Shown: one piece after another, positions 22,285 through 41,312 of the stretch | Numbering within the stretch: the first letter of the stretch is position 1 | How the letters are laid out: each line of letters begins with the position of its first letter | Assembly (NCBI RefSeq): GCF_037892425.1 | Contig: NZ_JBBKTT010000001.1 | Coordinates: forward strand, 868,001 to 932,000 | Origin: Lacibacter sp. H375 | Lineage (GTDB): Bacteria; Bacteroidota; Bacteroidia; Chitinophagales; Chitinophagaceae | Reading direction: 5' to 3' | Length of the DNA: 64,000 nt | Notes under the pieces: generated by a model | Seen by the model: the letters and a program-made list of their open reading frames with translations, nothing else | Database searches by the model: none | What the model was told of the DNA's origin: nothing | Program-made: the position numbers and the translations under genes

Positions 22285-22380
22285 GATCACGACAAATTTT
22301 GTAGTTTCGTTTAACCTGCACAGTTATGCAAAATTAAATAGACATAACTTCATATTTCAACCCTTAATCTCCAAGTAATA

Positions 22381-25300
22381 GTGTCAAAATCAGTTACATA
22401 CCCAAGATTTATCAGCAATCTACCCTGCGGCGACGATTTATTCGAAAGTAAGTCACAGGAGAGAACGGCCAAGCAAATTGCAGAGCATATTACAGCCGGT
22501 GATAAGGATTATCAATTGATAGGCCTTGATGGTGAATGGGGATCAGGTAAATCGAATGCGATTAGTATTGTAAGAAAGCAATTAGAAAAAAAACATCACC
22601 TATTTATATACGACACATGGGCACATCAGGAGGATCTTCAGAGACGGTCTTTTCTTGAAGAACTTACAGACGACCTACAAAAAAATCATATTGTTGATCA
22701 GGTAGAGTGGCGAACCCGACTGAATGACTTGCTAGCCAAGAAGAAAGTCACGATTACAAAAACAATCCCAAGATTAAGTTATGCAATTATAGCTTCTCTT
22801 CTCGTTGCAATATTGACGCCGTTAACAAAGGTGATTTCAGACGAAGTGCCTGATGATAAGCCTATTTACAAATTTCTTATTGCTGCAGCACCTCTGATGA
22901 TTGCAATTGGCGTATGGATTATAGCAGCCCTCCGGGATAAGCAACTTTGGAACATTACGCAGCTGTTTAGTATATATGAAAAACAGGATCTGCAAAAGAT
23001 CACCGATGAAACAATTTCAGAAAATGAACCTTCTGTTCGGGAATTTCGAAACTGGATGCATCAACTTGACCAGGCTTCTAACAAGAAAATTGTTATTGTA
23101 TTCGATAACATGGATCGTCTGCCATCTGAAAAGATAAAAATAATATGGGCGCTGCTTCACACATTCTTTTCGGCAGGATACTATTCAAATATTTGGGTGA
23201 TTGTGCCGTTTGATCGATCACATGTAAGACAAGCATTTGAAAAAGACGGAGGAGACAACAATTTTGAAAAAACGAATCATTTTATTAATAAAACGTTTTC
23301 GGTAATATTTACTATATCTCCGGCTGTACTAACCGATTGGAAAAAGTTTTTTGAAATAAAGTTCAAAGATGCATTTGGAGAGGAAGAGAAAGCAGAATTT
23401 ATCATCGCAAGGAAAATATTTGATTTGCATCACGCTTCAATTACCCCACGAAAAATAATTGCCTTTCTAAATGATATTGTATCTCAAAAAATGATCTGGC
23501 GGGAGCAAATTAAGTTACGTTATATTGCTACATTTGTTTTGAACAGGCAGGAGATTGCTGCCTCGCCTTTATTTGAAATTTTCAACAAAAAGTTTCTTGG
23601 AAAAGCAAAGGGCCTTTTTGCAGGTGATGACACTGTTTCTAACAATATTGCGGCTTTGCTTTATAACATCCCTTTAGAAAAAGCGGCTCAGGTTGCCCTA
23701 CAACGTGAAATAGAAATTACGATTAGGGAACGAAGAATAGATGATCTTAAAAAAATGGCTGACTCCCCAGATTTTATCAGCATTTTAGAACAGCTTGAGG
23801 TTGAAGATATTGATATTGAAGCGACAACAATATGTTTGAATGAGATACAAAAAGCGCTACCAACTACAAATGAAGATTCATTCCAAGTAATATGGGATCG
23901 CATAATAGGTTCACAACTAGCTACACAAATTCAGGCGGTTGAATTTACTGAAATCCATAAAATACTTATTCAGCAATCACGGCCGGAACAGCGCAAATAC
24001 TTTGTTGCGTATCTGCTAAAGGGATTCTCTGGGGCTTCAGAATTTGCAGGTTCAAGATATTTTTCGGCGCTGTCGGGCATAGAGGAATTCCTGAAAGTAA
24101 ATAATTTTAATATCGATTATTTATTGCTGGTAAAACCAAAACAACTATCGCCGGAGCAATTTCTTGACTATCTTGATAAAGCTGGCAGCAACTATAAGAA
24201 ATATAAAGCTAGTTCCGCTAGCGCTTCCGTTGAAGAATATCTTCTTAATAAAACACCAGGAGACCTTGCCAACGCTTCTGTTATTCAGCATCTAAAAGAC
24301 GAATTTCAGTTCACTGAACTTAAACATAAAATTGAAAGTACTATAAACAACAAGCAAGTGACTTTGCAAAATGTTTATTCATTGTTTGCGACTTACAGTG
24401 CGGTTTCACCTGAGTTGCTTCTAAGTGCAAAATTGCAAGATCAACAGATATACGATTTGTTGGCTGAGGCAGAGGAGGATTCAAATGAATACAACGAGCT
24501 TGCTACTATGAGGATTGCACGTGCGAATAAATTTGCGAATAACGGTCCGGCGATGAATACACTGCTTTCCGTGGTTGATGATGACTATATTTCAGCCATT
24601 TACTCCCGGATTCAATGTTATGCAGATTACGGCGGTCTTTTGGTATCTGTTTGTAACTGGCAAAAGCCGGCTTTACAAGCAGTGCTGAAGAAAATGATAC
24701 TCAGTAGCAATGGGCAGTCCTTGAGAATATTAGAAATACTTTCGAGGTTTAGTCAAATCGCTGTCGCTGTAGGGGTTAGCAAAGAGGACTTGTTGAAGGA
24801 CTTGAATCGTTGGGTGGATAGCTTAAGAGATCAACTAACAATTGACTATTTAAAATCAGCGATACCGGATGAGGAGTTTTACAAAGATGCACTCTCCATT
24901 GAATGCGAGTTGTCAGACCTAGTCTTAAAAATTGCCGTTAAATATGTCGAACAGGAGTCCGAAGATCATTGGAACGAGGCATTTAAAGGAAATGACCCTT
25001 ATTTGCTCAATGTCTTAAACATTCTGCTACCTTCTGATAAGATTGTAGAATTTCCCCAAAGTTTATTTGCCGCATATAAAACTGCTCTTAAAGCAATAGC
25101 CGATGGTGATGATGATTATGATATTTCCAATGTCCCACATGGTTTGTGGGACATGCTGTTCGTTAAGTGTGACAAATCTCATTTACAGGCAACTGTTAAA
25201 GACATCAGAGACATTTTTTTAAGAGATTCGAAAATATTGGAAACGCAATTTCTATTTTTTGAACCCATGTTGAGGGAACTTGGAGGACTGCAGGAATGGA

Positions 25301-25767
25301 GTGGTGAGGTTGTAAGGAAGATTTTAACTTCTTGCTATTCTTCAACCGAATGCCTTGAAATATTGGTTGCTAACAAAGATTATTATTCTTCCTTGATAGA
25401 TAAAGCCGGCGATGATGCCCTTGAATTTATCGACATTATACGTGGTAATCTTGAAAAAAATACAGGAAACACTTTGCTGAAAGAGTTCAGTACAAAAATT
25501 GACGAGGAACTAGCAGAGAATATTACTATATCCTATGTTGATTATTTTTCACCTGATAGGAAATCAAGCGGTTCTGACAAAATCCCAAATTTGATAAAAC
25601 GAAAAATTGAAAAGGGCCGTATGCTTCATTTCCTTGTTGATAACAATATGGTAGATGGAGATGACCCACATGTAGGTGAGTTAAAAAGGCTTCATATAAA
25701 ATACATATATAAAGGTGAGAAAAAGGAAAAAATAGTGACAGAAGGAAATTGGATGAGTTTACCGTAG
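22381..25767 (+). CDS. KAP family P-loop NTPase with two membrane helices (1128 aa)
   Basis: The start is GTG at 22381. Upstream in-frame stops and the early position of the P-loop leave no room for another start. The Walker A motif GEWGSGKS is at residues 51-58, and Walker B is in KIVIVFDNMDRLP (about 236-247). Two transmembrane helices (about 135-151 and 165-185) are inserted between them, the hallmark of KAP NTPases, which are membrane-anchored STAND-like ATPases often found in defence loci. The remaining 800 residues are a large helical region that may act as sensor. It closes a cluster with two proteases and is the probable ATP-driven core (inference). Confidence 0.85.
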   Translation: MSKSVTYPRFISNLPCGDDLFESKSQERTAKQIAEHITAGDKDYQLIGLDGEWGSGKSNAISIVRKQLEKKHHLFIYDTWAHQEDLQRRSFLEELTDDLQKNHIVDQVEWRTRLNDLLAKKKVTITKTIPRLSYAIIASLLVAILTPLTKVISDEVPDDKPIYKFLIAAAPLMIAIGVWIIAALRDKQLWNITQLFSIYEKQDLQKITDETISENEPSVREFRNWMHQLDQASNKKIVIVFDNMDRLPSEKIKIIWALLHTFFSAGYYSNIWVIVPFDRSHVRQAFEKDGGDNNFEKTNHFINKTFSVIFTISPAVLTDWKKFFEIKFKDAFGEEEKAEFIIARKIFDLHHASITPRKIIAFLNDIVSQKMIWREQIKLRYIATFVLNRQEIAASPLFEIFNKKFLGKAKGLFAGDDTVSNNIAALLYNIPLEKAAQVALQREIEITIRERRIDDLKKMADSPDFISILEQLEVEDIDIEATTICLNEIQKALPTTNEDSFQVIWDRIIGSQLATQIQAVEFTEIHKILIQQSRPEQRKYFVAYLLKGFSGASEFAGSRYFSALSGIEEFLKVNNFNIDYLLLVKPKQLSPEQFLDYLDKAGSNYKKYKASSASASVEEYLLNKTPGDLANASVIQHLKDEFQFTELKHKIESTINNKQVTLQNVYSLFATYSAVSPELLLSAKLQDQQIYDLLAEAEEDSNEYNELATMRIARANKFANNGPAMNTLLSVVDDDYISAIYSRIQCYADYGGLLVSVCNWQKPALQAVLKKMILSSNGQSLRILEILSRFSQIAVAVGVSKEDLLKDLNRWVDSLRDQLTIDYLKSAIPDEEFYKDALSIECELSDLVLKIAVKYVEQESEDHWNEAFKGNDPYLLNVLNILLPSDKIVEFPQSLFAAYKTALKAIADGDDDYDISNVPHGLWDMLFVKCDKSHLQATVKDIRDIFLRDSKILETQFLFFEPMLRELGGLQEWSGEVVRKILTSCYSSTECLEILVANKDYYSSLIDKAGDDALEFIDIIRGNLEKNTGNTLLKEFSTKIDEELAENITISYVDYFSPDRKSSGSDKIPNLIKRKIEKGRMLHFLVDNNMVDGDDPHVGELKRLHIKYIYKGEKKEKIVTEGNWMSLP

Positions 25768-27093: not shown

Positions 27094-27657
27094 ATGTCTT
27101 TATCTACCAAGCATCATGATTATGTGTTGTTTTATTTTTGCAATTTTCTTGCCCACAACTATGAGGAAGTAGATTCAATTGATTCATCTAACACTTTTCA
27201 AAGTCAGTTAAGGACAATGATGGAGAAAATTAATTTTATAACTGTTGATAATTTCACTTTTGACAAGCTTGAGAATCCGATCTTCTTTGCTCCACATAAA
27301 CGAGGTGTAATAAAAATTAATTTGTTGGATCGATTACAGCTTTACCGAGATATATTTTATTCTTCGAAAAATGAAACAGAAACTGAATTTTCAGGCGATC
27401 ATGTGTATTTAATGCTAAATAAACGAAACAATTATATTAAGATAGGAAAAAGCAAAACCCTTGGTTTTAGGGAAAAAACACTTCAGGCGGATGAACCCGA
27501 AGTTGTATTAGTTGTAACTTGGCATGCACCTGCAAAAGTGGAAAAGGAATTGCATCGAATGTTTTCTGATAAAAGGAAAAGGGGAGAATGGTTTAATTTG
27601 AAATTAAAGGAACTTAAGATTATCAAAGAGTATATGAAGCTTTATTTAACTAAATGA
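27094..27657 (+). CDS. T5orf172/GIY-YIG-type domain protein (187 aa as reinitiated)
   Basis: The C-terminal half has the T5orf172/MUG113 version of the GIY-YIG fold: HVYLMLNKRNNYIKIGKS, then Arg in GFREKTLQ, then the Glu/His cluster KVEKELHRMFSDKRKRGEWFNL. Proteins with this domain occur in phages and accessory regions, alone or fused to other parts, and are presumed nucleases. The N-terminal 100 residues are unassigned. An amber codon 57 bases upstream in the same frame cuts off a longer N-terminus, so the annotated start at 27094 may be secondary. Confidence 0.7.
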   Translation: MSLSTKHHDYVLFYFCNFLAHNYEEVDSIDSSNTFQSQLRTMMEKINFITVDNFTFDKLENPIFFAPHKRGVIKINLLDRLQLYRDIFYSSKNETETEFSGDHVYLMLNKRNNYIKIGKSKTLGFREKTLQADEPEVVLVVTWHAPAKVEKELHRMFSDKRKRGEWFNLKLKELKIIKEYMKLYLTK

Positions 27658-29500: not shown

Positions 29501-29679
29501 GATTTTGGATTTAGGGTACTTAAATAGGCTGTAATTATACAAACTGTTTTTTAAAAAATGAAATTTAAGGATAAGCGTATCATTTTCAATTACAGGTGCG
29601 TATTAAAACGCAGTATGTGTACTGATTAACCTTTTAAACTTCCGAATTTTATTAAACCGACTGATTCTCGCAAGAACAT

Positions 29680-29687
29680 TAAATTTG
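29680..29687 (+). promoter_or_regulatory. Probable -7 element TAAATTTG
   Basis: Matches the Bacteroidota -7 consensus TAnnTTTG and lies 21 bases before the ATG at 29709. Its last bases overlap the upstream TTG, which argues that the true start is 29709. A -33 TTTG is not clear. Confidence 0.45.
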
Positions 29688-29708
29688 CCTGATTCCAAAT
29701 TGATTTAC

Positions 29709-31697
29709 ATGCAGATTTTACATAAGATAGATGATTTTTTAGGCGAGCTTTTTCCGGGGTTTAAGACTTCTAGAAATAATCTCGAGATTTTAAAGGATGA
29801 AGTTGCCCGATACTATACTTATGGAGCGTTTAAACCAACAGTTACTATAAATGGAGACCTGGTTATCGTTGATGTTGATACTTCCAGTATTCTAAACCAG
29901 GATGCTGACTACAGAGAGGTTGTTTCATTGTGTGATAAAGGTAAATTTAGTGATGCGATTCTTATTTTAACAAAGCTGATTGCGGCTAATCCTACCAATT
30001 CGGAATATCATCGCATTTACGGACAGATACTATCAGAGCAAGGAAATCAAGACGCAGCGATCAACTCATTAATTGATGCATTAAGGTGGGATCCGAAAAA
30101 CGGCTATGCTTTGTTGATGATGGGGAATATCTATGGCCGTTATAAAGATGATGTAGCTACTGCTATGACGTTTTATAACAAGGTACTTGAACATAACCCA
30201 AGCGATTATATTGCGATGAACAATATCGGTGCTTTTTTACTGCAACTGCATAAATATGAAGAGGCAGCAGGTTATTTTGAAAAAGCGTTTGCCATAAATG
30301 ATCAATACCCCAATACTACGTATGGGCTGGCTTATGCGTACCATGAAATTGGAAGTCCATTGATTGCTTTTGATTTTGCGATTAAGAGTTTGAAAAGCTG
30401 TAAGAGCAGCAGTGACCAGCTCTACCGTAACAGTTACAGCCTGGCAGCAACTATTGCAGAAGCCTATTGCGATTCAGAAAAGGGGAACCATATTTTTGAA
30501 GGCTATAAAACAGCGCTTGAGAAAAAAGCAGGATTACCTATACGTGCAGAAGCAGACCAAAGTATTGCTACAGCGGCAAAGATTGAATTTGCAGAAAACT
30601 ATAACCGTGATTTCCACTTTATTAAATACAAACCCGGATATGAGGTCGTAGCTCATTTGATGATGCATGAGCTAGTGCACCTGGATTTTATGACTGATGC
30701 CCGTGCAGTTAATAATAATATGCTTTTTACTGCCGGCGGGGATATGCGTTTGCATTTTAAACGGGATTATGCAAAAGATATGCGAAGGTTGGCAGGTACA
30801 GGCATGAGTGAGGAAAGTATTGCCGGATTCATGGATGCTTTGTATAACGGTATTTGTAACCAGATTTTTAATGCGCCTACAGACCTGTTTATTGAAGATT
30901 ATTTGTTTAGCAAATATGAAGCGTTACGGCCGTACCAGTTTTTATCGGTACACAGGTTAATAGAAGAAGGCAAGAATGCTGTGACTGATAAACGTGTGGT
31001 ACAGTATAGCCCGGCGTTTATACTTTCTGCATCGAAAGTTTTAAATATGCTGAATGCGATACAGTTTAAAGATTTGTTTGGCGTAGACTTACTGAAAGCT
31101 TTTGACGCAACTTTAAAAGAGCAAAAACAAGCAGAGGCCTTATGGGAAGAGTATTTAGACTACAGGGCAGATAAAGAGCCCGGTGAAGAATATGAAATTA
31201 TACAGCATTGGGGCGAAGACCTTGGATTAGAAAAGTATTTTCAATTAATAGACGAGCAGGATTTTCGTAAGCGACCGAAAGATGTTGACAGTTTTCTTGA
31301 ATCGTTAGATAAAGACCCGTTAGGGCTTGAACAGGATACAAACCTGAAGGAACGGGAAATGAATAGATTTCAAGAGAACGAACAAAGCAAGGGCACCAAC
31401 CCTGCTGTACTGATGTATATGGTTGATGCATTGGGTTATTTTGAAGGGATGGGTAAAGACAAGATCAAAGCGATTGCTTTTGATATAGCCATGCTGGGAA
31501 CACAAGGTATTAACCCGGAGGAGGGGAATGTGTATAGTGTACCTTCAATTCAGGGCAAAGAATTTTCGGGTTATCATCTTTTAGCGTATTATTATGTTAG
31601 CTGGAAACTAGCTGTGCCAGAAATGTTGGGGCAATTAGGCTTGCCATTTGATGACGAGTATAAGCTGGCTGAGCAAATGTACCATGCAAAGAAATAG
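29709..31697 (+). CDS. TPR protein with HExxH metallopeptidase-like domain (662 aa)
   Basis: The start at 29709 is preferred because the earlier TTG falls in a -7 box. Tetratricopeptide repeats cover about residues 70-250 (for example GQILSEQGNQDAAINSLIDALRWDP and NNIGAFLLQLHKYEEAAGYFEKAF). Near residue 320 comes HELVHLDF, a zinc-binding HExxH motif inside a hydrophobic helix, which suggests a metalloprotease. The C-terminal 250 residues are helical and acidic. TPR plus peptidase suggests a target-binding protease. The stop is two bases before the MazG-like gene, so it heads a tight operon. Protease activity is inferred. Confidence 0.7.
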   Translation: MQILHKIDDFLGELFPGFKTSRNNLEILKDEVARYYTYGAFKPTVTINGDLVIVDVDTSSILNQDADYREVVSLCDKGKFSDAILILTKLIAANPTNSEYHRIYGQILSEQGNQDAAINSLIDALRWDPKNGYALLMMGNIYGRYKDDVATAMTFYNKVLEHNPSDYIAMNNIGAFLLQLHKYEEAAGYFEKAFAINDQYPNTTYGLAYAYHEIGSPLIAFDFAIKSLKSCKSSSDQLYRNSYSLAATIAEAYCDSEKGNHIFEGYKTALEKKAGLPIRAEADQSIATAAKIEFAENYNRDFHFIKYKPGYEVVAHLMMHELVHLDFMTDARAVNNNMLFTAGGDMRLHFKRDYAKDMRRLAGTGMSEESIAGFMDALYNGICNQIFNAPTDLFIEDYLFSKYEALRPYQFLSVHRLIEEGKNAVTDKRVVQYSPAFILSASKVLNMLNAIQFKDLFGVDLLKAFDATLKEQKQAEALWEEYLDYRADKEPGEEYEIIQHWGEDLGLEKYFQLIDEQDFRKRPKDVDSFLESLDKDPLGLEQDTNLKEREMNRFQENEQSKGTNPAVLMYMVDALGYFEGMGKDKIKAIAFDIAMLGTQGINPEEGNVYSVPSIQGKEFSGYHLLAYYYVSWKLAVPEMLGQLGLPFDDEYKLAEQMYHAKK

Positions 31698-31699
31698 TT

Positions 31700-32029
31700 A
31701 TGAGCGACCTGCAATTACTTACTGAGAAGATTCTTGCTTTTAGAAATGACCGTGATTGGGAACAGTTTCATAATGCAAAAGATTTAGCATTAGCATTAAA
31801 CGTTGAGGCCGGTGAATTGCTGGAACTGTTTTTATGGAAAGAAGCGGAGCAGGCAGATACGACGAAGGTTAAAGAGGAGCTGGCTGATGTGCTTATGTAT
31901 GCATTGTTACTTACGGAGAAATATCAATTGGATGTGAAGCAAATTATTTTGGATAAGCTGGAGAAGAATAACGAGAAGTATCCTGTTGATAAAGCGAAGG
32001 GAAATGCAAAAAAGTATAATGAACTCTGA
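31700..32029 (+). CDS. MazG-like nucleotide pyrophosphohydrolase (109 aa)
   Basis: All-alpha NTP pyrophosphatase of the MazG/dCTPase-like superfamily, which hydrolyses (d)NTPs to monophosphates. The metal-binding Glu residues are in LNVEAGELLELFLWKE and VKEELADVLMYALLL. An N-terminal helix (FRNDRDWEQFHNAKDLALAL) matches the short RS21-C6-type members. It begins two bases after the TPR-HExxH gene, and its stop overlaps the start of the next gene (TGATG), giving translational coupling. In a nuclease operon it could deplete or clean nucleotide pools (inference). Confidence 0.85.
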   Translation: MSDLQLLTEKILAFRNDRDWEQFHNAKDLALALNVEAGELLELFLWKEAEQADTTKVKEELADVLMYALLLTEKYQLDVKQIILDKLEKNNEKYPVDKAKGNAKKYNEL

Positions 32030-33117
32030 TGCAGCTTGAAGCATTACTAAAATATAAATCCCTTTATAAAATAACCGGCACCCCCGAAAATTTTCTAACT
32101 GCCTTGCGATTTATGCAATGGGGATTTAATGACAAAAATTATAAGTCCTGGAAAAAAATTCAAACAGGTGATATCGTTTGTTTTCATTCCAAAGCAGAGG
32201 ATTCGAAATTTATAAAGAAAGGAACCTCATGTGTTATTGGATTTGGAATTGTAGGCAACATAAAGTTTGAAACTAAAGAATTGCTTTGGATAGAAGAGTT
32301 TGAAAACCAGCAATTGATGTACCCGTATCATTTCAATTTTTCTGAAATAACATTTTTTACAGATGTAATAGTTGATGATACATGGGATTCCCAAACACTA
32401 AATAAAAGAGAACGAACAGCTGAGCTTATCAATAAGTTGTTGCAGAATGGAATCCCTTTGAGAGAACTGCCAGGATTTAACCAAATGGGCTCGTTTTCTA
32501 TTTTAAAGTCAGTTAATTCCGCACTACTATTTCAAAAACCAAAGGTGTTTTCTGTTTTTGACAATGAAAATGATGAGGTTCAAACTAATTCGCCACTTGA
32601 AAAAGTTGAACTAGCCGAAGAAATTTTTAGAAAAGCGACTTCACTCTCTGTTAGTGATGAGGTGCAACAAAAAATTATAAATAAGAAAAGTGTTACAACA
32701 ACAAAAGACCTGACGTTACTTGAAAGGGCTGAGAAAGAACATTTTGAAACATTGCAAAGGACTTTACTTTTTTTTAAGGATAAAGGCTTCGAAACATATT
32801 CAAATAAATATGTTGACTTATTTGCTATAAAAAATGATGAGTCGTTTTTGGTAGAAGTAAAAAGTCTGGAGAATAGAAATTTCAGAAGCCAAATGCGAAA
32901 AGCAATAGCACAGCTTTTTGAATACAATTATTTTGAAATCCAGAATTTCCAAAACGAAAGAAATATATTAGAACTAAATAATACAAACCTGCTTGTGACT
33001 TCAAGAAAACCAACACAAAAAGAATACATAAATTTTATAAATTCACTTAAAATTGAAATGGCCTATCGTGACAATGATGGAATTGTTGGCATAGGTACCA
33101 GAAATAGCTTCATTTAG
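32029..33117 (+). CDS. EVE-like domain + PD-(D/E)XK nuclease fusion (362 aa)
   Basis: The N-terminal half (about 1-160) has the PUA/EVE-like pattern NFLTALRFMQWGFN...WKKIQTGDIVCFHSK...CVIGFGIVG. Such domains read modified bases or nucleotides. The C-terminal domain is a PD-(D/E)XK nuclease: Asp in YVDLFAI, then EVK in FLVEVKSLENRNF, then the helix QMRKAIAQLFEYNYF with the QxxxY feature of Cas4/RecB-type enzymes. This is the arrangement of modification-dependent restriction enzymes. Its ATG overlaps the MazG-like stop by one base, and the helicase gene follows after 32 bases. Target modification is unknown. Confidence 0.75.
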   Translation: MQLEALLKYKSLYKITGTPENFLTALRFMQWGFNDKNYKSWKKIQTGDIVCFHSKAEDSKFIKKGTSCVIGFGIVGNIKFETKELLWIEEFENQQLMYPYHFNFSEITFFTDVIVDDTWDSQTLNKRERTAELINKLLQNGIPLRELPGFNQMGSFSILKSVNSALLFQKPKVFSVFDNENDEVQTNSPLEKVELAEEIFRKATSLSVSDEVQQKIINKKSVTTTKDLTLLERAEKEHFETLQRTLLFFKDKGFETYSNKYVDLFAIKNDESFLVEVKSLENRNFRSQMRKAIAQLFEYNYFEIQNFQNERNILELNNTNLLVTSRKPTQKEYINFINSLKIEMAYRDNDGIVGIGTRNSFI

Positions 33118-33149
33118 ACTTGCTATAACCCAAAAACACACCGCCAACC

Positions 33150-35003
33150 ATGATTGTATACCAAGCTACCAAAGCTGAGTTTTCTGACGACGTTTTAGAC
33201 GATCGGATTGATTTAAAAATACTAGAGTTTTTCAAAAAAAACTTAAAGCAAAGTACTTCAAAACAGGAGATAACTGCCTGGAAGAATTCCATGATTTACA
33301 TGGATAAAGTCCTCAATGATTCTGAATTGCCGGATGACTGCGGCGTGGCTATTGAATACCAGCTTCCACAATCTGCCAAGCGAATTGATTTTATTTTGAC
33401 CGGACTCGGAAATGACAATGAAGAGTATGCAATCCTTGTTGAGTTAAAGCAATGGAGCGAAGCAACGCTTTCGGATAAGGATGGTGTTATCAATTCATTT
33501 GTTGGTGGAAATATCCGTGAACTCACCCACCCTGCTTACCAGGCATGGTCTTATGCCAGCTTACTGCAGAATTTTAACCAGACTATTGAAGAAGAAAAAA
33601 TTCAACTGCAACCCTGTGCCTATTTACATAACTATATAGCAGATGATGTTATCACGAATGAATGTTACCAAGATTATATTGATAAAGCTCCTGTGTTTTT
33701 AAGAGGTGATGCTGTTAAGCTACGCAACTTTATTAAACAGTTTGTAAAACATGGAGATAAGACAAACATACTTTACCGAATTGACCAGGGTAAGATAAGA
33801 CCATCGAAGATGCTTGCTGACAGTATGGTTTCGATGCTGAAAGGCAATTCTGAATTTGTGATGATCGATGACCAGAAAATTGTTTATGAAACGGGGATTT
33901 CTTTGTCCGTTAAGGCAAGTGAGAAGAAGAAAAAAGTGCTGATCGTAAAAGGAGGGCCTGGAACCGGAAAGAGTGTTGTTGCTATTAATCTTTTGGTAGA
34001 GCTTACAAAACGTGGACTTCTTGCACAATATGTTTCCAAGAATGCAGCACCCCGTTCTGTTTATGAAAATAAGCTGACGGGTACATTTAAGAAGACAGTT
34101 ATCTCTAACATGTTCAGTGGTTCGGGTGCTTTCATTAGTACCGGGGCTAATACGTTTGATACATTGATTGTTGATGAAGCACACCGGTTAAATCAGAAAT
34201 CAGGCTTGTATGCTAATTTAGGAGAAAACCAGATCAAGGAAATTATTGATGCTGCTAAGTGTTCCATTTTCTTTTTGGATGAAGACCAGCGGGTAACGTT
34301 AAATGATATTGGTTCGTTCAAGGAAATTTATAAATGGGCCTCGAGGGTGGATGCAGAAATTGTAGAGATGGAGCTTTCCTCTCAATTTCGTTGTAATGGG
34401 TCGGATGGATATCTGGCATTTCTTGATCATATCCTTGATATTCGAGAAACGGCAAATACATCACTTGATGGGATTGATTATGACTTTAAAGTTTTCTCTG
34501 ACCCGAATGAAATGCGTGCAGCTATTGAGGAGAAAAACAAGATCAACAACAAATCGAGAATGGTGGCAGGGTATTGCTGGGAATGGAACAGCAAAAAGAA
34601 CCCGCAGTTGTACGATGTGGTGCTGCCAGAATATGATTTTAAAATGCAGTGGAACTTAACAACGGATGGCAGTCTTTGGATCATTAGCCCAGAATCGATT
34701 AACCAAATAGGGTGTATTCACACTTGCCAGGGCTTAGAGGTTGATTATATTGGCGTGGTGATTGGGCCGGATTTAATTTACAAGGACGGCAAAGTGTTAA
34801 CTCAACCTGCAGCAAGAGCGAAGGGAGATAAATCTGTTTTTGGCTACAAGAAATATATGGAACGACACCCGGAAGAAGCAAAGGCAACATTACGTTCCTT
34901 GATAAAAAATACTTACCGGACTTTGATGACAAGAGGAATGAAGGGTTGTTATGTGTATTGTGTAGATAAAGAGCTTGAGCGATACTTAAGAAGTGCTCTT
35001 TAA
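33150..35003 (+). CDS. PD-(D/E)XK nuclease-like domain fused to DUF2075-type SF1 helicase (617 aa)
   Basis: The N-terminal region (about 60-130) has a nuclease-like core, RIDFILTG...YAILVELKQW. The helicase/ATPase follows: Walker A GGPGTGKS (residue ~270), Walker B TLIVDEAHRL, motif III-like FFLDEDQRVT, and late motifs LSSQFRCNG and CIHTCQGLEVDYIGVVIG. This is the DUF2075 family of UvrD-like superfamily I proteins. It is the last gene of the TPR-HExxH/MazG/EVE operon and probably supplies translocation or unwinding. It is 617 residues, normal for the family. Confidence 0.8.
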   Translation: MIVYQATKAEFSDDVLDDRIDLKILEFFKKNLKQSTSKQEITAWKNSMIYMDKVLNDSELPDDCGVAIEYQLPQSAKRIDFILTGLGNDNEEYAILVELKQWSEATLSDKDGVINSFVGGNIRELTHPAYQAWSYASLLQNFNQTIEEEKIQLQPCAYLHNYIADDVITNECYQDYIDKAPVFLRGDAVKLRNFIKQFVKHGDKTNILYRIDQGKIRPSKMLADSMVSMLKGNSEFVMIDDQKIVYETGISLSVKASEKKKKVLIVKGGPGTGKSVVAINLLVELTKRGLLAQYVSKNAAPRSVYENKLTGTFKKTVISNMFSGSGAFISTGANTFDTLIVDEAHRLNQKSGLYANLGENQIKEIIDAAKCSIFFLDEDQRVTLNDIGSFKEIYKWASRVDAEIVEMELSSQFRCNGSDGYLAFLDHILDIRETANTSLDGIDYDFKVFSDPNEMRAAIEEKNKINNKSRMVAGYCWEWNSKKNPQLYDVVLPEYDFKMQWNLTTDGSLWIISPESINQIGCIHTCQGLEVDYIGVVIGPDLIYKDGKVLTQPAARAKGDKSVFGYKKYMERHPEEAKATLRSLIKNTYRTLMTRGMKGCYVYCVDKELERYLRSAL

Positions 35004-35742: not shown

Positions 35743-36498
35743 ATGAATCCAAAATCAGCGAGCCAAGAAGCACTAGACTATAAAAAGAAGACTGAATTTG
35801 AGAATGCTTTAAAGCAAAGGAACTTTGAAATAGATCTATTTTGGAAGAGAAGTTGGTTTTTCGGTGCTTTGATCATTGCAGAAATAGCAGCTTACTATAA
35901 GTTGAAGGTGGATTATAATGAAAATTTTCCTCCTGTTACTATTGCTTTCTTAACATGTCTTACTGTTTTAGCACAATGCCTTATGAACAGAGGTAGTAAA
36001 TACTGGCAAGAGCGTTGGGAATATATGACTATGAATAGAGAAGCTGCCCTAAATCTTGAATTGACAAGGTTAAAAAAGTTTGATGATGAAACTCTCAATT
36101 CGTGGTTATATAAACATTATAAAGACGACGATAGAAACGAATGGTTTTTTATCGATGCTTCAATCTTAGCAAAAGATGATAATCTATTGACTAAGGCTCG
36201 AAGGTTTTCAGTTTCAAAAATCACTTTTCTTGTTTGGGATATAATTTTAATAATTTCGGTTTTATGTTGGTTTAATGAATCACTTGGTCTATTATCATCG
36301 ACCCCAAATTGGATATTCACTATAAAACTCTCTATATTCTACTTTATCATTCTGGCTTATATTTTCCTTTTCTGGAGAAATGGAAGTGTTTATGAGAATT
36401 ACAAACAGTCTATTGCTGATTTAGGAAAAGAAAAATTAAAAGAAGTAAATAGCAACTACGCAAATGGAAAAATAAGTACCACATTCCCTTTACAATAA
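35743..36498 (+). CDS. Four-helix membrane protein beside KAP NTPase (251 aa)
   Basis: Two hydrophobic helices near the N-terminus (about 36-53 and 61-80) and two near the C-terminus (about 158-180 and 190-211) flank a cytoplasmic loop of about 75 residues. After helix 2 comes CLMNRGSKYWQERWEYM, a conserved-looking NRGSKxWQxxWE motif typical of a family of four-helix proteins found beside ATPases and in conflict systems, where they may act as membrane pores or anchors. It starts 20 bases after the upstream hypothetical gene and 54 bases before the KAP gene. Effector role is inferred. Confidence 0.6.
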   Translation: MNPKSASQEALDYKKKTEFENALKQRNFEIDLFWKRSWFFGALIIAEIAAYYKLKVDYNENFPPVTIAFLTCLTVLAQCLMNRGSKYWQERWEYMTMNREAALNLELTRLKKFDDETLNSWLYKHYKDDDRNEWFFIDASILAKDDNLLTKARRFSVSKITFLVWDIILIISVLCWFNESLGLLSSTPNWIFTIKLSIFYFIILAYIFLFWRNGSVYENYKQSIADLGKEKLKEVNSNYANGKISTTFPLQ

Positions 36499-36552
36499 AG
36501 AAATCTATAAAACTTATTATACTATTTGTCTAACCATTTAATGGCTCCGTAA

Positions 36553-37959
36553 ATGCAAATAAAACATAAAGAACTTACGATTACATCTGAGAAACCTTTT
36601 GAACATTGCAGACTCGAAAGGAAAAAGTATGCAGAAGTACTTACTAGCATTGTAAGCACCTATGAAGATGGATTTGTTTTAGCCATTAACAATGAATGGG
36701 GAACAGGCAAGACCACATTTGTAAAAATGTGGGAACAACACTTGAAGAATCAGCATTTCCATACTCTATATTTTAATGCTTGGGAAAATGACTTTGAGAT
36801 TGATCCACTAGCTGCATTGCTTGGTGAACTGAAGAAACTATTTCCTGAAACACAAAAAACTGCTTTTAAAAGTTTATTAGAAAAAGGTTCTATCCTTACA
36901 AAAAACATCGTTCCGGCCTTAATAAAATATTTAATAAAAAAACATACTGGAAAAGAAGATTTAGCAGACCTTCTTGAAGCGAGCGCTAAAGGTGCCACCG
37001 CTCTTCTTGAAGACGAGATTAATGCATATACAACCAAGAAAGATGGGATTGTTGAATTTAAAAGAGAGTTAGAAAAATACATTAGTGAGAGTGCCAAAGC
37101 AAAACCAATAATTTTTATCATTGATGAGTTAGATAGATGTCGACCAAGTTATGCAGTGGAAGTTTTAGAACAAATGAAACATTTTTTTAGTGTACCTGGA
37201 ATTGTTTTTGTTTTATCAATTGACAAAGAACAACTAGGGAATGCGGTAAGGGGTGTCTACGGTAGCGAGCAAATAAATGTTAATGAATATCTTCGAAGAT
37301 TTATTGATGTTGAATATAGCCTTCCTAATCCAACCATTAGTGCCTTTTGTAAGTATTTATTTCATTACTATGATTTTGACTCATTCTTTAAGTCGACAGA
37401 AAGAAATTTCATAACAGAATTTCATAATGACGGCAAGTCATTTTATGAGTTTTCTTCTCTACTGCTTGAAGAAAAGAATTTGACACTCAGACAAGTTGAA
37501 AAACTTTTTTCGTACTCAAGACTTGCACTTAACTTATTTAGCAAGGATAATTATATTTTTCCAAGTACTTTTCTGTTTTTAATTTATCTAAAAGACTACA
37601 ATAATAAAATATATCAACAGATTAAACTTAGAAAATATGATTTGCAACAATTTGTTGATAATACTTGCATACTACTCCCCTTTTTAAATACTGAAGAATA
37701 TTCAAACTATTTTTCAAAAATAGAGTCTTTACTGATTCTTACTTATTATAATTATTTAAAACAAAAACAATCTAGTATTAAGTTATTGATTCAACAACCT
37801 GATTATAAATTCAGGCTGAATATAAAATCATCAATTAAGACTGACGATTCAGACTCATTACTTTTACGATATTTAGAATCTTATAGATATAAGGACTTTT
37901 ATAACATTGGTATTGATCATTTGATATATCGTATTGATTTGCTAGAAGAAATAAAATAA
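36553..37959 (+). CDS. KAP family P-loop NTPase, soluble type (468 aa)
   Basis: Walker A NEWGTGKTT is at residues 47-55, and Walker B is in PIIFIIDELDRCRP (about 184-196), followed by VLSIDKEQLGNAVRG and YLRRFIDVEYSLP, all standard KAP features. Unlike the larger KAP protein at 22.4 kb it has no membrane helices, which the neighbouring four-helix protein may supply. The C-terminal 200 residues are helical and AT-rich in codon use. It ends the accessory region. The pair resembles a compact two-gene ATPase/membrane effector unit (inference). Confidence 0.8.
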   Translation: MQIKHKELTITSEKPFEHCRLERKKYAEVLTSIVSTYEDGFVLAINNEWGTGKTTFVKMWEQHLKNQHFHTLYFNAWENDFEIDPLAALLGELKKLFPETQKTAFKSLLEKGSILTKNIVPALIKYLIKKHTGKEDLADLLEASAKGATALLEDEINAYTTKKDGIVEFKRELEKYISESAKAKPIIFIIDELDRCRPSYAVEVLEQMKHFFSVPGIVFVLSIDKEQLGNAVRGVYGSEQINVNEYLRRFIDVEYSLPNPTISAFCKYLFHYYDFDSFFKSTERNFITEFHNDGKSFYEFSSLLLEEKNLTLRQVEKLFSYSRLALNLFSKDNYIFPSTFLFLIYLKDYNNKIYQQIKLRKYDLQQFVDNTCILLPFLNTEEYSNYFSKIESLLILTYYNYLKQKQSSIKLLIQQPDYKFRLNIKSSIKTDDSDSLLLRYLESYRYKDFYNIGIDHLIYRIDLLEEIK

Positions 37960-38294: not shown

Positions 38295-38302
38295 TATATT
38301 TG
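38295..38302 (+). promoter_or_regulatory. -7 element TATATTTG of the tetR promoter
   Basis: Matches TAnnTTTG and lies only seven bases before the ATG at 38310, implying a very short or absent leader. The operator occupies the spacer to the -33 region, as expected for autorepression. Confidence 0.45.
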
Positions 38303-38309
38303 TTTTGCT

Positions 38310-38912
38310 ATGAACGATGCACTTTCAAAATCGGAACGGACGAAGCAATTTATCATTGAGAAAACAGCCCCTGTTTTCAATGCAAAGGGTTTTGCCGGTA
38401 CCTCACTTACCGACCTCACAAAAGCAACCGGATTAACGAAAGGAAGTATTTATGGAAACTTTGAGAACAAAGATGAAGTGGCGCTGGCGGCGTTTGACTA
38501 CAACTTTGCAAGGATAACTGCGTATATGAAAGCGAAGATACTGGCATCGGAACATTCCATTGACCGGTTGCTGGCTTATCCGAAAGTATACAGGGATTTT
38601 TTAAAGATCCCTTTTCTGCAACCCGGCTGTCCGATTTTAAATACATCAACTGAAGCGGATGATACGCACCCCATGTTAAGAGCGAGGGCGGCGGAAGCTT
38701 TGGCCTTCTGGAAAAAGTCGATTGAGAACCAGGTGAAAAGAGGAATTGAACGTAAGGAAATTAAGGCGGGAACAAATGCCACTGCGGTTGCAGTTATTAT
38801 GATGTCGATTATTGAAGGCGCCATTATGCAGGCCAAGGTAACGGGAAAATCCACGGAGTTAAAAATAGCAATGGACTACCTGCAGCAACTGATTAACGAT
38901 TTACGTGTTTGA
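38310..38912 (+). CDS. TetR/AcrR family transcriptional regulator (200 aa)
   Basis: An N-terminal HTH (about 12-58) with TAPVFNAKGFAGTSLTDLTKATGLTKGSIYGNFENKDEVALAAF, typical of TetR proteins, then an all-helical ligand domain with PGCPILNTSTEADDTHP, a TetR_C subgroup motif seen in regulators of small-molecule stress. Identical 14-base operators lie before its own start and before the next gene, so it probably represses both itself and the following thioesterase/PEBP genes until an inducer binds. It is 200 residues, normal for the family. Inducer unknown. Confidence 0.9.
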   Translation: MNDALSKSERTKQFIIEKTAPVFNAKGFAGTSLTDLTKATGLTKGSIYGNFENKDEVALAAFDYNFARITAYMKAKILASEHSIDRLLAYPKVYRDFLKIPFLQPGCPILNTSTEADDTHPMLRARAAEALAFWKKSIENQVKRGIERKEIKAGTNATAVAVIMMSIIEGAIMQAKVTGKSTELKIAMDYLQQLINDLRV

Positions 38913-38930
38913 TTTTTTTTGCACTAAAAT

Positions 38931-38944
38931 ATACCGATTGGTAT
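38931..38944. promoter_or_regulatory. TetR operator 2 (ATACCGATTGGTAT)
   Basis: The exact reverse complement of operator 1, placed 15 bases before the thioesterase start and 18 bases after the tetR stop. Two identical 14-base palindromes flanking one tetR gene strongly indicate its binding site. Confidence 0.75.
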
Positions 38945-38958
38945 AAAATAAAAAATGT

Positions 38959-39444
38959 ATGACTGAACTGAAAAAGGTTTTAGAAAGTAAAAAGAAAATC
39001 CGCTTTCATGATTGTGACCCTTACAATCATTTGAACAACTCACGGTATATCGATTATATCGTAACTGCCAGAGGTGATCAGTTGCTGGATAACTACCAGC
39101 TTGATATTTACAAACTGGCGGCGGAGCAGGGCATTGGCTGGGTATCGGCCCAAACACAGATCTCTTATCTGTATCCCGCCTACCTGATGGAAGAGGTGGT
39201 GATACAAACTCAACTACTGGCATTTTCTGAAAAGAGTTTGCTGCTTGAAGCGTTTATGTGGAACAACAGCAAGACCATCTTAAAGGCTGTGATGTGGACG
39301 AAGCTTGTGCATTATCATTTAAAGGCACAAAAAAGTTATGCGCATTCAGATGAATTGCTGCAGCTGTTCGGGCAGGTAGTAAACCCGCTGCCTGCTGCTA
39401 TGGATTTTGAAACAAGGATAAAAAGTTTAAAACAAACCACATGA
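38959..39444 (+). CDS. Acyl-CoA thioesterase, 4HBT hotdog family (161 aa)
   Basis: The hotdog-fold pattern of the YbgC/FadM-like group: KIRFHDCDPYNHLNNSRYIDYIV (catalytic Asp region DCDPYNHLNN), then VSAQTQISYLYPAYLMEEVVIQTQLL. Such enzymes hydrolyse acyl-CoA thioesters. The gene is controlled by a TetR operator directly upstream, which suggests response to an acyl compound or stress. It overlaps the next gene by four bases (ATGA). Substrate unknown. Confidence 0.8.
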   Translation: MTELKKVLESKKKIRFHDCDPYNHLNNSRYIDYIVTARGDQLLDNYQLDIYKLAAEQGIGWVSAQTQISYLYPAYLMEEVVIQTQLLAFSEKSLLLEAFMWNNSKTILKAVMWTKLVHYHLKAQKSYAHSDELLQLFGQVVNPLPAAMDFETRIKSLKQTT

Positions 39445-39983
39445 TACCATTACTATTAGTTGTTGCTGTTCTTGCGGGAAAAGTATGCAGCTCACAAACC
39501 TTTACACTTAAGTCGAGAGATTTAGGTGGACAGGCAACGCAAAAGCAGATACTTCCGGGATTTGGATGTACCGGTGAAAATATCTCTCCTCAATTATATT
39601 GGGAACAGGCACCGGCCGGTACGAAAAGTTTTGCGGTTACCATGTATGATGAGGATGCGCCAACCGGCAGTGGCTGGTGGCATTGGTTGATATTTGATAT
39701 CAATAAGTCTGTTACTGAACTTTCATCAGATGCAGGTAATAGTAAAAGCAAACTGGCGCCAAAAGGTTCGGTACAAAGCAAAACAGATTTTGGCCGGGAA
39801 GGTTATAGCGGGCCCTGCCCTCCTGCCGGCAGCGGGTTTCACCGGTATGTGATCACTGTATATGCTTTAAAGGTGGAGAAACTTGGACTGGATGAAAACG
39901 CAAGCCCGGCAATGGTTGGGTATTACCTGCATGAGCACACAATACAAAAAGCATCCCTATTATTTTACTATAAGCACTCATGA
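39441..39983 (+). CDS. YbhB/YbcL family Raf kinase inhibitor-like (PEBP) protein
   Basis: A phosphatidylethanolamine-binding-protein fold. It shows an N-terminal signal-like segment (PLLLVVAVLAGKVCS), then FGCTGENISPQLYWEQAPAGTKSFAVTMYDEDAPTGSGWWHWL, which contains the DPDAP-like (here DEDAP) and GxxxHW motifs of the family. GYSGPCPPAGSGFHRYVITVYAL is also characteristic. Biochemical function in bacteria is unclear. Its ATG overlaps the thioesterase stop, so the pair is translated together under the TetR operator. Confidence 0.9.
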   Translation: MIPLLLVVAVLAGKVCSSQTFTLKSRDLGGQATQKQILPGFGCTGENISPQLYWEQAPAGTKSFAVTMYDEDAPTGSGWWHWLIFDINKSVTELSSDAGNSKSKLAPKGSVQSKTDFGREGYSGPCPPAGSGFHRYVITVYALKVEKLGLDENASPAMVGYYLHEHTIQKASLLFYYKHS

Positions 39984-40092
39984 GTGAATGATGGCAGCAG
40001 ACCATTTTTGGAAGAAAAGAAATGGTTTGTCTGAACACTTATGTACAGCCATGAAAAGACCGACTGCAGGTAATTTATAAAAGAATACGCCA

Positions 40093-40614
40093 ATGAAATT
40101 TGAATTAGAGGAGACGCTTAAAATTATTGAGGCAACACCTGAAACGCTTTATGTATTGCTTCATGGTCTTTCACGGGACTGGATATATGCCAATGAAGGC
40201 GAACATACCTGGAGTGCTTTTGATGTGGTTGGGCATTTAATTGTTTGTGAGAAAACAGATTTTATTACCCGAACAGAAATCATTCTTTCTGCATCTGATA
40301 ACAAATTATTTCCTCTTATTGATATGACGGCCCAGTTTGAACTGAATAAGGGGAAGAGTATAGCTGAGTTATTACAGGAGTTTCAACAACTCAGAAGAGA
40401 GAATATCAAAAAATTACTTGCCTTTGAGCTCACAGAAAGTGATTTTAAGAAAACGGGGATACATCCAAAAATCGGAGAAGTAACACTTGCTGAATTACTT
40501 GCCGGCTGGGCCGCCCACGATCTGAATCATCTTTCACAGATAGCAAGAGTAATGGCAAAGCAATACAAACATGCCATGGGGCCATTTATGGAATTTGTAA
40601 GTATAGTAAAATAA
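40093..40614 (+). CDS. DinB family protein (173 aa)
   Basis: Four-helix-bundle DinB-type protein, a fold of putative metal-dependent thiol S-transferases. The metal ligands expected in this family are visible as the first-helix His (DVVGHLI) and the C-terminal HDLNHLSQIARV (two His). The protein is 173 residues, as usual. It begins 109 bases after the PEBP gene and ends five bases before the racemase gene. Substrate unknown; many Bacteroidota carry several such proteins with poorly known detoxification roles. Confidence 0.8.
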   Translation: MKFELEETLKIIEATPETLYVLLHGLSRDWIYANEGEHTWSAFDVVGHLIVCEKTDFITRTEIILSASDNKLFPLIDMTAQFELNKGKSIAELLQEFQQLRRENIKKLLAFELTESDFKKTGIHPKIGEVTLAELLAGWAAHDLNHLSQIARVMAKQYKHAMGPFMEFVSIVK

Positions 40615-40619
40615 ATACA

Positions 40620-41312
40620 ATGAAAACAATCGGACTTGTAGGTGGTATCAGCTGGACTTCAACCATTGACTATTACCGTTTTATTAATGAGGAAACAAAT
40701 AAGGTGCTTGGCAGTTTAAACTTTGCCGAATGCATTATCTATTCTGTAAACTTTGAGCATTTCAGAAAAAGTAATGCTGCCTACAACTGGGATGCCACAT
40801 TCGAATTATTATTAAAGGCTGCGTTGCATTTAGAACAAGCGGGTGCCGAGGTACTTCTGTTAGGTGCAAACACAGCGCATATTGTTGCAGACAGAATTCG
40901 TGCATGTGTACAGCTGCCGCTGATTGATATAAGGGAAGCTACCTCTAATGCCATTCATGAAAAGGGACTTAAAAAAGTTGGATTGATGGGAACATCCTAT
41001 ACAATGGAACTTGATTTTTACAAAGAGAAACTTTCAGCAAGTGATATTGAAGTTCTAACACCTTCAAATAAAACAGACAGGGATTATATAGAAGAAACGC
41101 TTGTGCATGAGTTAGGCAGAGGAATCCTGTCAGAAGAAACCAAAAAAAACTATTTGACGATTGCCAACAGGTTAATTGCGGAAGGTGCGGAAGGAATTGT
41201 ATTAGGATGTACTGAAATTCCACTCATTATTCAACAAGCCGATCTGCCTGTACCTGTTTTTAATACCACGCAGATTCATGCAAAAGCAGCTGTTGATTTT
41301 GCCTTACAGTAA
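40620..41312 (+). CDS. Aspartate/glutamate racemase family protein (230 aa)
   Basis: Members interconvert D- and L-amino acids with two cysteines. The N-terminal GLVGGISWTSTIDYYRFIN and the C-terminal LGCTEIPLII are typical, and the second catalytic Cys is retained in GCTE. The first position, normally (C)xNTxH, reads GANTAH. The first Cys is therefore Ala, so the protein may be a one-sided deaminase/isomerase-like enzyme or inactive as a racemase. It is five bases after the DinB gene. Confidence 0.8.
   Translation: MKTIGLVGGISWTSTIDYYRFINEETNKVLGSLNFAECIIYSVNFEHFRKSNAAYNWDATFELLLKAALHLEQAGAEVLLLGANTAHIVADRIRACVQLPLIDIREATSNAIHEKGLKKVGLMGTSYTMELDFYKEKLSASDIEVLTPSNKTDRDYIEETLVHELGRGILSEETKKNYLTIANRLIAEGAEGIVLGCTEIPLIIQQADLPVPVFNTTQIHAKAAVDFALQ

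What the first reader, a model, noticed from the sequence alone, without database searches (positions are those of the whole stretch)
29709..35003. Candidate new defence operon: TPR-HExxH protease, MazG-like, EVE-PD(D/E)XK, PD(D/E)XK-helicase
Four genes with gaps of 2, -1 and 32 bases. The MazG-like stop and EVE start overlap, so they are translated together. The domains make a logical set: a modified-base reader with a nuclease, a helicase with its own nuclease-like domain, a nucleotide pyrophosphohydrolase, and a TPR protein with an HExxH zinc motif. I know EVE-nuclease restriction and DUF2075 helicases, but I do not recognise this four-gene combination as a described system. It lies in an AT-rich region beside two KAP NTPases.
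Basis: partly seen in the sequence, partly recalled or inferred. Interest (0 to 1): 0.82.

Follow-up and report, generated by a model that had tools for sequence, protein, structure and literature searches.

The report
Shared protease on modified-DNA defence operon
Four co-expressed bacterial genes look like a compact anti-virus system that attacks foreign DNA, and two of its parts, a protease and a nucleotide-cleaning enzyme, are reused beside other bacterial DNA-defence systems, which suggests shared safety or control devices.

Summary
The four genes and their spacing are confirmed. Exactly this block (29674-34987) recurs at 87% DNA identity with different immediate flanks in a genus-mate, and the same gene order recurs in a genome of another class (EVE protein 43% identical). 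It is a real cassette, but not a closed system. The MazG-helicase pair is a common core without the other two genes. The TPR-HExxH protein ('TPRz') belongs to an unnamed zincin-like family (H320, E321, H324, D392, E396 in 59 of 59). In 67 of 75 usable loci it lies near a DNA-targeting module: SLFN-g3 helicase 30, type III 11, McrBC-like 10, type I 5, BREX 4, helicase+IIG 4, other 3. Its best tree needs 22 partner changes. The MazG is closest to dCTP pyrophosphatase 1. It is present in 39 of 40 TPRz loci with methyltransferase-less modules and 1 of 25 with methyltransferase-type systems. Best reading: a modification-dependent (type IV-like) restriction cassette, with a dCTP-pool cleaner for self-tolerance and an interchangeable control or abort protease. 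Anti-phage activity, enzyme substrates, the zincin fold and the EVE fold remain unproven.

The parts
29709..31697 (+). TPRz: TPR-repeat protein with C-terminal HExxH zincin-like domain (662 aa)
29877..30482 (+). TPR solenoid of TPRz (residues 57-258)
30666..30680 (+). HELVH zinc motif (residues 320-324)
   Evidence: H320, E321, H324 identical in 59 of 59 sequences of 600 aa or more
30870..30896 (+). N388..D392..E396: candidate third zinc ligand E396 (role inferred)
   Evidence: D392 and E396 identical in 59 of 59, N388 at 1.00
31700..32029 (+). MazG-like, DCTPP1-type nucleotide pyrophosphohydrolase (109 aa)
   Evidence: PF12643 1.9e-18; best PDB hit dCTP pyrophosphatase 1 / RS21-C6, 3.2e-19
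32029..33117 (+). EVE-like reader fused to PD(D/E)XK-like nuclease (362 aa)
   Evidence: homologues in G201 (92%) and G450 (43%)
32080..32352 (+). EVE-like domain (residues 18-108)
   Evidence: profile match to PH1033 0.016 and MJECL36 0.063; PRK00809 6.8e-4, below cut-off
32815..32862 (+). PD(D/E)XK-like motif VDLF..VEVK (residues 263-278), read by eye
   Evidence: D37, E50, K52 of alignment A7 identical in 3 of 3; no significant Pfam hit
33150..35003 (+). Schlafen group 3 helicase with N-terminal nuclease-like region (617 aa)
   Evidence: PF09848 5.3e-108; PADLOC PDC-S41 1.8e-17, AbiO 4.9e-12, Nhi 1.9e-11
33930..34967 (+). SLFN-g3 helicase domain (residues 261-606)

Best explanation
A DNA-targeting immune cassette of the modification-dependent (type IV-like) sort, built from three separable layers. 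(1) Attack layer: the EVE-PD(D/E)XK protein reads a modified base and nicks DNA, and the Schlafen-group-3 helicase with its own N-terminal nuclease region translocates and degrades that DNA. (2) Self-tolerance layer: the MazG protein is a DCTPP1-type dCTP pyrophosphatase that removes 5-modified dCTP from the pool. The host then does not build the trigger base into its own DNA, or a phage making modified dCTP is starved of it. This layer replaces the methyltransferase that other restriction systems use. (3) Control layer: TPRz is a zinc protease with a TPR docking surface. It is shared by unrelated DNA-targeting systems and acts on a component common to their activated state, either to limit the attack or to abort the cell. 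Shown: gene content, transfer of the block, family assignments, invariant motif residues, partner swapping, and the MazG/methyltransferase split. Inferred: every biochemical step, and the direction of the protease's effect.
For: Block 29674-34987 is 87% identical in G201, with unrelated DNA on both immediate sides. Same order in G450, same phylum but another class (PF09848 3.4e-89 and PF12643 1.7e-17). MazG's best PDB match is dCTP pyrophosphatase 1; MazG residues R18, W20, H24, E39, W46, E60 and D63 are 52 of 52, and E36 51 of 52. MazG is near TPRz in 39 of 40 loci with SLFN-g3 or McrBC-like modules and in 1 of 25 with type I/III/IIG/BREX-type modules, Fisher 1.5e-15; of 6 phylogenetically independent pairs 4-5 agree and none disagrees. 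MazG also precedes an EVE-like-HNH gene (L197). In 32 TPRz genomes, 23 of 28 strong SLFN-g3 helicases, 23 of 24 strong MazG and 6 of 8 DUF2357 matches lie within 10.5 kb of TPRz, against about 0.04-0.15 expected. The best TPRz tree needs 22 partner changes, shuffled mean 29.3. DCTPP1 hydrolyses 5-methyl and 5-formyl dCTP in vitro (PMC7162842, passages).
Against: The EVE assignment is weak (best E 6.8e-4, below that model's cut-off), and its AlphaFold model failed (pLDDT 34). The nuclease domains are motif readings only. No TPRz substrate is known and its zincin fold was not tested alone. A conserved partner repressor, as in CapH-CapP, is not general: an XRE gene lies within 350 bp upstream in 10 of 80 loci and none was found in the window or G201. 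One type III locus also has MazG (L175), one McrBC-like locus lacks it (L117), and the phylogeny-controlled sign test has median p 0.0625 (range to 0.125). Two of the 40 'methyltransferase-less' loci hold a gene with an NPPY-like motif about 8 kb from TPRz (L118, L155). Plain dCTP depletion is equally compatible with DCTPP1-type chemistry. Partner types are not random on the tree (0 of 200 shuffles need as few changes). 8 of 75 usable TPRz loci show no recognised partner.
Confidence: 0.5

Rival explanations
1. TPRz is an abortive-infection effector: when the attached restriction module engages DNA, TPR docking switches on the protease, which cleaves host or phage proteins. MazG depletes dCTP to stop phage replication. 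Both are second-line killers and not safety devices.
For: TPRz sits with systems of very different recognition logic and its motif residues are invariant. Backup suicidal effectors attached to BREX are described (PMC12839542, passages). DCTPP1 hydrolyses plain dCTP (PMC7162842, passages).
Against: The MazG presence/absence split follows the lack of a methyltransferase, which plain dNTP depletion does not predict. No toxicity data.
Confidence: 0.28
2. TPRz is a transcriptional controller like CapH-CapP or PprI-DdrO: a DNA-damage-sensing zincin cleaves a repressor and induces the downstream immune operon.
For: No co-directional ORF within 100 bp upstream of TPRz in 37 of 52 loci examined, so it is often the first gene. 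An XRE-type gene within 350 bp upstream in 10 of 80 loci, 9-11 bp away in five (six of the ten seeded the search profile). CapP is ssDNA-activated and sits at diverse immune operons (PMC13373217, passages).
Against: No XRE match within 350 bp upstream of TPRz in the window, G201 or 70 of 80 loci. TPRz can be convergent to its module (L114, L144, L162, L164), where 5' control of the operon is unlikely. No recognisable similarity to a solved protease by sequence.
Confidence: 0.15
3. The four genes are an accidental pile-up in a defence island with no joint function.
For: The window is an island with two KAP NTPases and a strong PDC-S20 match, and the EVE gene is rare (full-length in 2 of 248 genomes of the order, and 2 of 395 of the phylum sample; the window's own genome is in both counts).
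Against: Same order at 43% EVE identity in a distant genome, exact co-transfer, overlapping or closely spaced genes, and proximity far above chance.
Confidence: 0.05

Closest known systems
Type IV / modification-dependent restriction (McrBC; EVE-HNH enzymes such as VcaM4I)
   Same: Reader plus nuclease plus motor, and no methyltransferase in the operon; MazG also stands in front of McrBC-like AAA_5 + DUF2357-PDDEXK_7 pairs and of an EVE-like-HNH gene.
   Different: The motor is a Schlafen-group-3 helicase, not an McrB GTPase; it carries a DCTPP1-type MazG and a TPR-zincin; modified-base dependence is untested.
Nhi / AbiO helicase-nucleases (SLFN-g3 helicase family)
   Same: Helicase region; PADLOC matches at 1.9e-11 and 4.9e-12.
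   Different: Only partial-length PADLOC matches; MazG beside it in 15 of 16 genomes of the order sample with an open strong helicase match (interrupted G089 and contig-edge G175 not counted); N-terminal nucleases PD(D/E)XK-like (by eye) or GIY-YIG.
CapH-CapP, CapW/BrxR and CapK-CapS shared immune-operon controllers
   Same: One small module reused beside unrelated immune operons; CapP is also a peptidase (PMC13373217, passages).
   Different: TPRz is a 660-aa TPR protein usually without an adjacent repressor, and is sometimes convergent to its module.
dCTP pyrophosphatase 1 (DCTPP1 / RS21-C6)
   Same: Closest solved relative (3.2e-19), shared RDWEQFH...WK and EEL-DV segments.
   Different: Encoded in bacterial defence cassettes; substrate not measured.
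RptR-RMS-DarTG-M48 island of EPEC
   Same: A predicted zinc metallopeptidase next to a type I R-M system (PMC12255303, passages).
   Different: M48 family, downstream end of the island; the term TPR does not occur in the paper's main text.

Membership tests
Type IV (modification-dependent) restriction | No cognate methyltransferase in the operon | tested here: met
   None among the four genes; none of the methyltransferase clusters in 40 related HEL/McrBC-like loci, but NPPY-like motifs about 8 kb away in two
Type IV (modification-dependent) restriction | Modified-base-binding domain | tested here: inconclusive
   EVE-like N-terminus, best E 6.8e-4 (below cut-off) and 0.016; Pfam silent; structure model failed
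Type IV (modification-dependent) restriction | Cleaves only modified DNA | not testable with these tools
   Needs phage or plasmid assays
SLFN-g3 helicase family (Nhi/AbiO-like) | SLFN-g3 helicase domain PF09848 over its full length | tested here: met
   5.3e-108, profile 1-354 of 354
SLFN-g3 helicase family (Nhi/AbiO-like) | Nuclease domain | tested here: inconclusive
   VELKQW motif read by eye; Pfam on residues 1-259 gives no significant hit; PDC-S41 match covers 22-299
DCTPP1-type MazG pyrophosphohydrolase | MazG-like domain with the E-E-E-D metal site and base-stacking tryptophans | tested here: met
   PF12643 1.9e-18; E39, E60, D63, W20 and W46 in 52 of 52, E36 in 51 of 52; roles of the residues recalled
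DCTPP1-type MazG pyrophosphohydrolase | Hydrolysis of dCTP / 5-modified dCTP | not testable with these tools
   Needs enzyme assay
CapH-CapP-type controller | Zincin with HExxH and downstream acidic ligand | tested here: inconclusive
   Motif residues identical in 59 of 59, but the fold of this domain was not tested alone
CapH-CapP-type controller | Adjacent HTH repressor | tested here: not met
   No XRE-profile match in the window or G201; within 350 bp upstream in 10 of 80 loci
CapH-CapP-type controller | ssDNA activation and cleavage of the repressor | not testable with these tools
   -
Any system modelled in PADLOC-DB 2.0.0 or NCBIfam | Full-length model for TPRz or for the EVE protein | tested here: not met
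   P0001 and P0003 have no PADLOC hit at 1e-3. Other TPRz members do match: 21 of 51 PDC-M16B (best 1.3e-7), 20 of 51 PDC-M71B (1.5e-7), 6 of 51 a TPR model; positions not shown, probably the TPRs (inferred). NCBIfam hits of P0001 lie in the TPRs, below cut-offs

The most novel reading that the evidence does not exclude
Two undescribed, interchangeable parts of prokaryotic immunity. First, a TPR-zincin protease that serves as a general post-translational control or abort device for mechanistically unrelated DNA-targeting systems (type I, type III and type IIG restriction, BREX, McrBC-like, Schlafen-helicase). Second, a DCTPP1-type pyrophosphatase that gives modification-dependent restriction its self-tolerance by keeping modified cytosine out of the host's own DNA, the functional counterpart of the missing methyltransferase.
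Probability: 0.35. Interest if true: 0.87.

Novelty: new variant of a known kind. Interest (0 to 1): 0.74.

Why it matters
If right, it explains how restriction systems without a methyltransferase avoid attacking their host: by policing the nucleotide pool and not by marking the chromosome. It also adds a protease to the short list of parts reused across immune systems. Both ideas can be tested directly with one enzyme assay (MazG on modified dCTPs) and one phage panel (modified against unmodified DNA). The TPRz family could serve as a marker for DNA-targeting defence modules, mostly in Bacteroidota, with a few loci from Nitrospirae, Chlorobi, Ignavibacteria and Opitutales.

Tried and rejected
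Full-TPRz searches return TPR proteins in most genomes (222 of 248); only 4 hits were full-length, so the zincin part alone was used for the large scan. Two scans of viral contigs with single-sequence queries, which find close relatives only, gave no TPRz or EVE relative. The EVE model was unusable. A sequence-profile search of the zincin part against solved structures gave one chance-level hit (0.39). An empty-site comparison in the genus (14 genomes) using window 38300-40700 gave two partial matches in G171 and short ones in four others and was not pursued. L180 (386 aa) and L074 (320 aa), partners of MazG, look like reader-nuclease fusions by eye, but Pfam (both) and PDB (L074) gave no support, so they are not counted. 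I considered and dropped a Qat system: the KAP gene downstream scores 68 bits against a QatA cut-off of 600.

Statements that something is not in print rest on searches (open-access PMC only).
Full report
1. The four ORFs lie where stated, with gaps of 2, -1 and 32 bases. Pfam finds TPR repeats in gene 1, a MazG-like domain (1.9e-18) in gene 2, nothing in gene 3 and a full-length Schlafen-group-3 helicase domain (5.3e-108) in gene 4. The HExxH motif (residues 320-324) is real. The EVE and nuclease labels of gene 3 were guesses that later found moderate support.

2. The block is a unit. In a genus-mate (G201, 19-kb locus L056) homology to the window runs from 29674 to 34987 at 87% identity, exactly the four genes, and stops on both sides. 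The only other shared DNA in that locus is a stretch matching window 16.4-18.0 kb, several kb upstream in both genomes, so the two cassettes probably occupy one variable site. A search of 395 genomes of the phylum with gene 3 found one more full-length homologue, G450 (43%, another class), and there the order TPR-zincin, MazG, EVE-nuclease, SLFN-g3 helicase is repeated. Chance pile-up is therefore unlikely. TPRz also lies on plasmids: a Hymenobacter plasmid typed as mobilizable (TPRz, MazG, AAA_5 gene), a second Hymenobacter record with an N-terminal fragment and MazG, and a Marivirga plasmid where the gene is interrupted.

3. Gene 3. Its N-terminus has a homologue in G504, where it is fused to an HNH nuclease (PF01844 6.4e-14) and again follows a MazG gene. 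A four-sequence profile picks PH1033 (0.016) and MJECL36 (0.063) from all solved structures. I treat EVE as likely, not proven. The C-terminal D..ExK motif is conserved in 3 of 3 sequences, but no database search supports a nuclease there.

4. The core is MazG-helicase. In 248 genomes of the order, 16 have a MazG hit of at least 129 bits. The helicase follows directly in 13, behind the EVE gene in 2 (G000, G201), and in G031 a GIY-YIG-bearing ORF breaks off. Of 16 open strong helicase matches (>=98 bits; G089, full of stops, and the contig-edge fragment in G175 left out), 15 have MazG; G077 does not. Two helicase types occur: the 617-aa type of the window and a ~736-aa type, of which two representatives show GIY-YIG and S24-like regions. 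Full-length TPRz is in 4 of 248 genomes, each time beside the MazG-helicase operon.

5. TPRz is a family of its own. A scan of genome contigs (84,980 species) with the zincin part gave 92 relatives, 80 kept (L104-L183): mostly Bacteroidota, a few from Nitrospirae (4 loci), Chlorobiaceae (4), Ignavibacteria (2) and Opitutales (1). H320, E321, H324, D392 and E396 are identical in 59 of 59 sequences of 600 aa or more, the window's included. The AlphaFold model is confident (pLDDT 89.3, pTM 0.70); residues 57-258 are a TPR solenoid. For the window protein no Pfam, NCBIfam or PADLOC model above its threshold covers the zincin part, and no solved structure matches it by sequence. Up to 21 of 51 family members match PADLOC candidate models at about 1e-7, positions not shown.

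6. Its neighbours. I clustered neighbouring proteins and identified cluster representatives with Pfam and PADLOC; not every protein was scanned. Of 80 loci, 5 end within 110 bases of TPRz. Of the other 75: SLFN-g3 helicase 30 (in L167, L170-L172 some kb away and not adjacent), type III 11 (L150 shows only a Res gene), McrBC-like (AAA_5 + DUF2357-PDDEXK_7) 10, type I 5 (L136 only an HsdR fragment), SNF2/PLD helicase + IIG 4, BREX 4, single others 3 (Eco57I MTase + T5orf172 helicase; DUF6079; DUF4062-HATPase, the last two loosely assigned), none recognised 8 (L124, L132, L165, L174, L177, L179, L180, L183). TPRz has no co-directional ORF within 100 bp upstream in 37 of 52 loci, but it can be convergent to its module (L114, L144, L162, L164).

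7. Controls. 34 of the 80 loci (my pick among those with long flanks) lead to 32 held genomes; L151 was not held and two loci share one genome; 32 handles were given. There 23 of 28 strong helicase matches (>150 bits), 23 of 24 strong MazG matches (>50 bits) and 6 of 8 DUF2357 matches lie within 10.5 kb of TPRz, against about 0.15, 0.13 and 0.04 expected (contig identity was taken from matching coordinates). A quick tree of 72 TPRz sequences (60 with a partner label) needs 22 partner changes where 6 is the least possible; shuffles average 29.3 and none of 200 is as low. Partners are thus inherited to some extent but swapped often. The tree has several long branches, L196 the longest. In Flavobacterium the same upstream genes precede TPRz with a helicase module, a type I system or a helicase-IIG pair (L135, L156, L158, L159).

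8. The MazG clue. Its best solved relatives are dCTP pyrophosphatase 1 / RS21-C6, with near-identical segments. MazG lies near TPRz in 44 of 80 loci (three of them partial: L119, L132, L177): 30 of 30 helicase loci and 9 of 10 McrBC-like loci, but 1 of 25 loci with methyltransferase-type systems (a methyltransferase gene is visible in 22 of those 25; the three others are cut by contig ends). Fisher p is 1.5e-15. With phylogeny controlled, 4-5 of 6 independent pairs agree, none disagrees, median p 0.0625. DCTPP1 acts on dCTP and on 5-methyl and 5-formyl dCTP in vitro (PMC7162842, passages). The economical reading is that MazG serves systems that cannot mark self by methylation and instead attack modified cytosine.

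9. TPRz function. Shared modules upstream of diverse immune operons are known: CapW/BrxR, CapH-CapP and CapK-CapS (PMC13373217, passages). PprI is a metallopeptidase that senses DNA damage by binding ssDNA (PMC10904395, title and start of abstract in a listing). A predicted M48 metallopeptidase beside a type I system is reported in EPEC (PMC12255303, passages). TPRz differs: an XRE-type gene lies within 350 bp upstream in only 10 of 80 loci, six of which seeded that search, and TPRz may be convergent. I therefore prefer direct action on proteins (control or abort) over repressor cleavage, without being able to choose the direction.

10. Literature. The term pairs MazG+DUF2075 and DUF2075+defense return no paper; MazG+McrBC+anti-phage returns one, on toxin-antitoxin systems (listing). 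In four relevant papers I saw only passages found by term. The EVE genomic-context paper PMC7641849 has no hit for MazG, schlafen or TPR. The BREX survey PMC12839542 has none for TPR, zincin, metallopeptidase or pyrophosphohydrolase. The CoCoNuT paper PMC11090510 has none for MazG, pyrophosphohydrolase or protease, but one figure legend lists an unspecified TPR protein among neighbours that include type I and III systems, which I cannot tell from TPRz. The YprA preprint PMC12458937 mentions TPR-cold-shock proteins, no protease. Not every term was asked of every paper, and supplements were not readable. Prior description elsewhere is possible.

Noticed in passing
window 35743-37959: 8xMP membrane protein plus KAP NTPase; the KAP gene matches PADLOC candidate system PDC-S20 at 2.6e-164: an independent candidate defence pair.
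   Followed up: no
window 18201-25767: Two trypsin-like peptidase genes followed by two genes without a Pfam hit and a 1128-aa KAP NTPase; may be a further conflict-system operon.
   Followed up: partly
window 27094-27657: Small protein with a MUG113/T5orf172 domain (GIY-YIG-like by recall).
   Followed up: no
window 10599-10633: DUF805b RNA motif, the only Rfam match at gathering threshold in the window.
   Followed up: no
L067 10083-12308, L058 10095-12299: Two ~736-aa helicases carry a weak GIY-YIG match at the N-terminus and an S24 peptidase-like region at the C-terminus: a possible self-cleaving switch.
   Followed up: no
L135, L156, L158, L159: Flavobacterium loci share the same genes upstream of TPRz but have different modules downstream (helicase, type I, helicase+IIG): a cassette-swapping site.
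   Followed up: partly
L107, L108, L125, L127, L129, L138, L145, L150 (within 40 bp); L120, L148 (within 350 bp): XRE-type helix-turn-helix gene upstream of TPRz, 9-11 bp away in five.
   Followed up: partly
L165 5985-7304: TPRz beside a Y-family polymerase (IMS) gene in a Chlorobiaceae genome; same cluster also in L111, L146 and L183 (not scanned).
   Followed up: no
L056 4979-7582 (G201): Upstream of the cassette in G201 lie a QueC-like protein and neighbours that resemble, by eye only, a base-modification or CBASS-ancillary set (sequences).
   Followed up: no
L114 5552-7564: BrxL with a C-terminal MIT_C phospholipase-D-like domain.
   Followed up: no
L151 11148-11855, L063 4709-5419: In two TPRz-MazG-helicase loci an Exo_endo_phos-type nuclease gene is inserted between TPRz and MazG, perhaps a stand-in for the EVE nuclease (Pfam for L151; the other by clustering of the same genome's L120).
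   Followed up: partly
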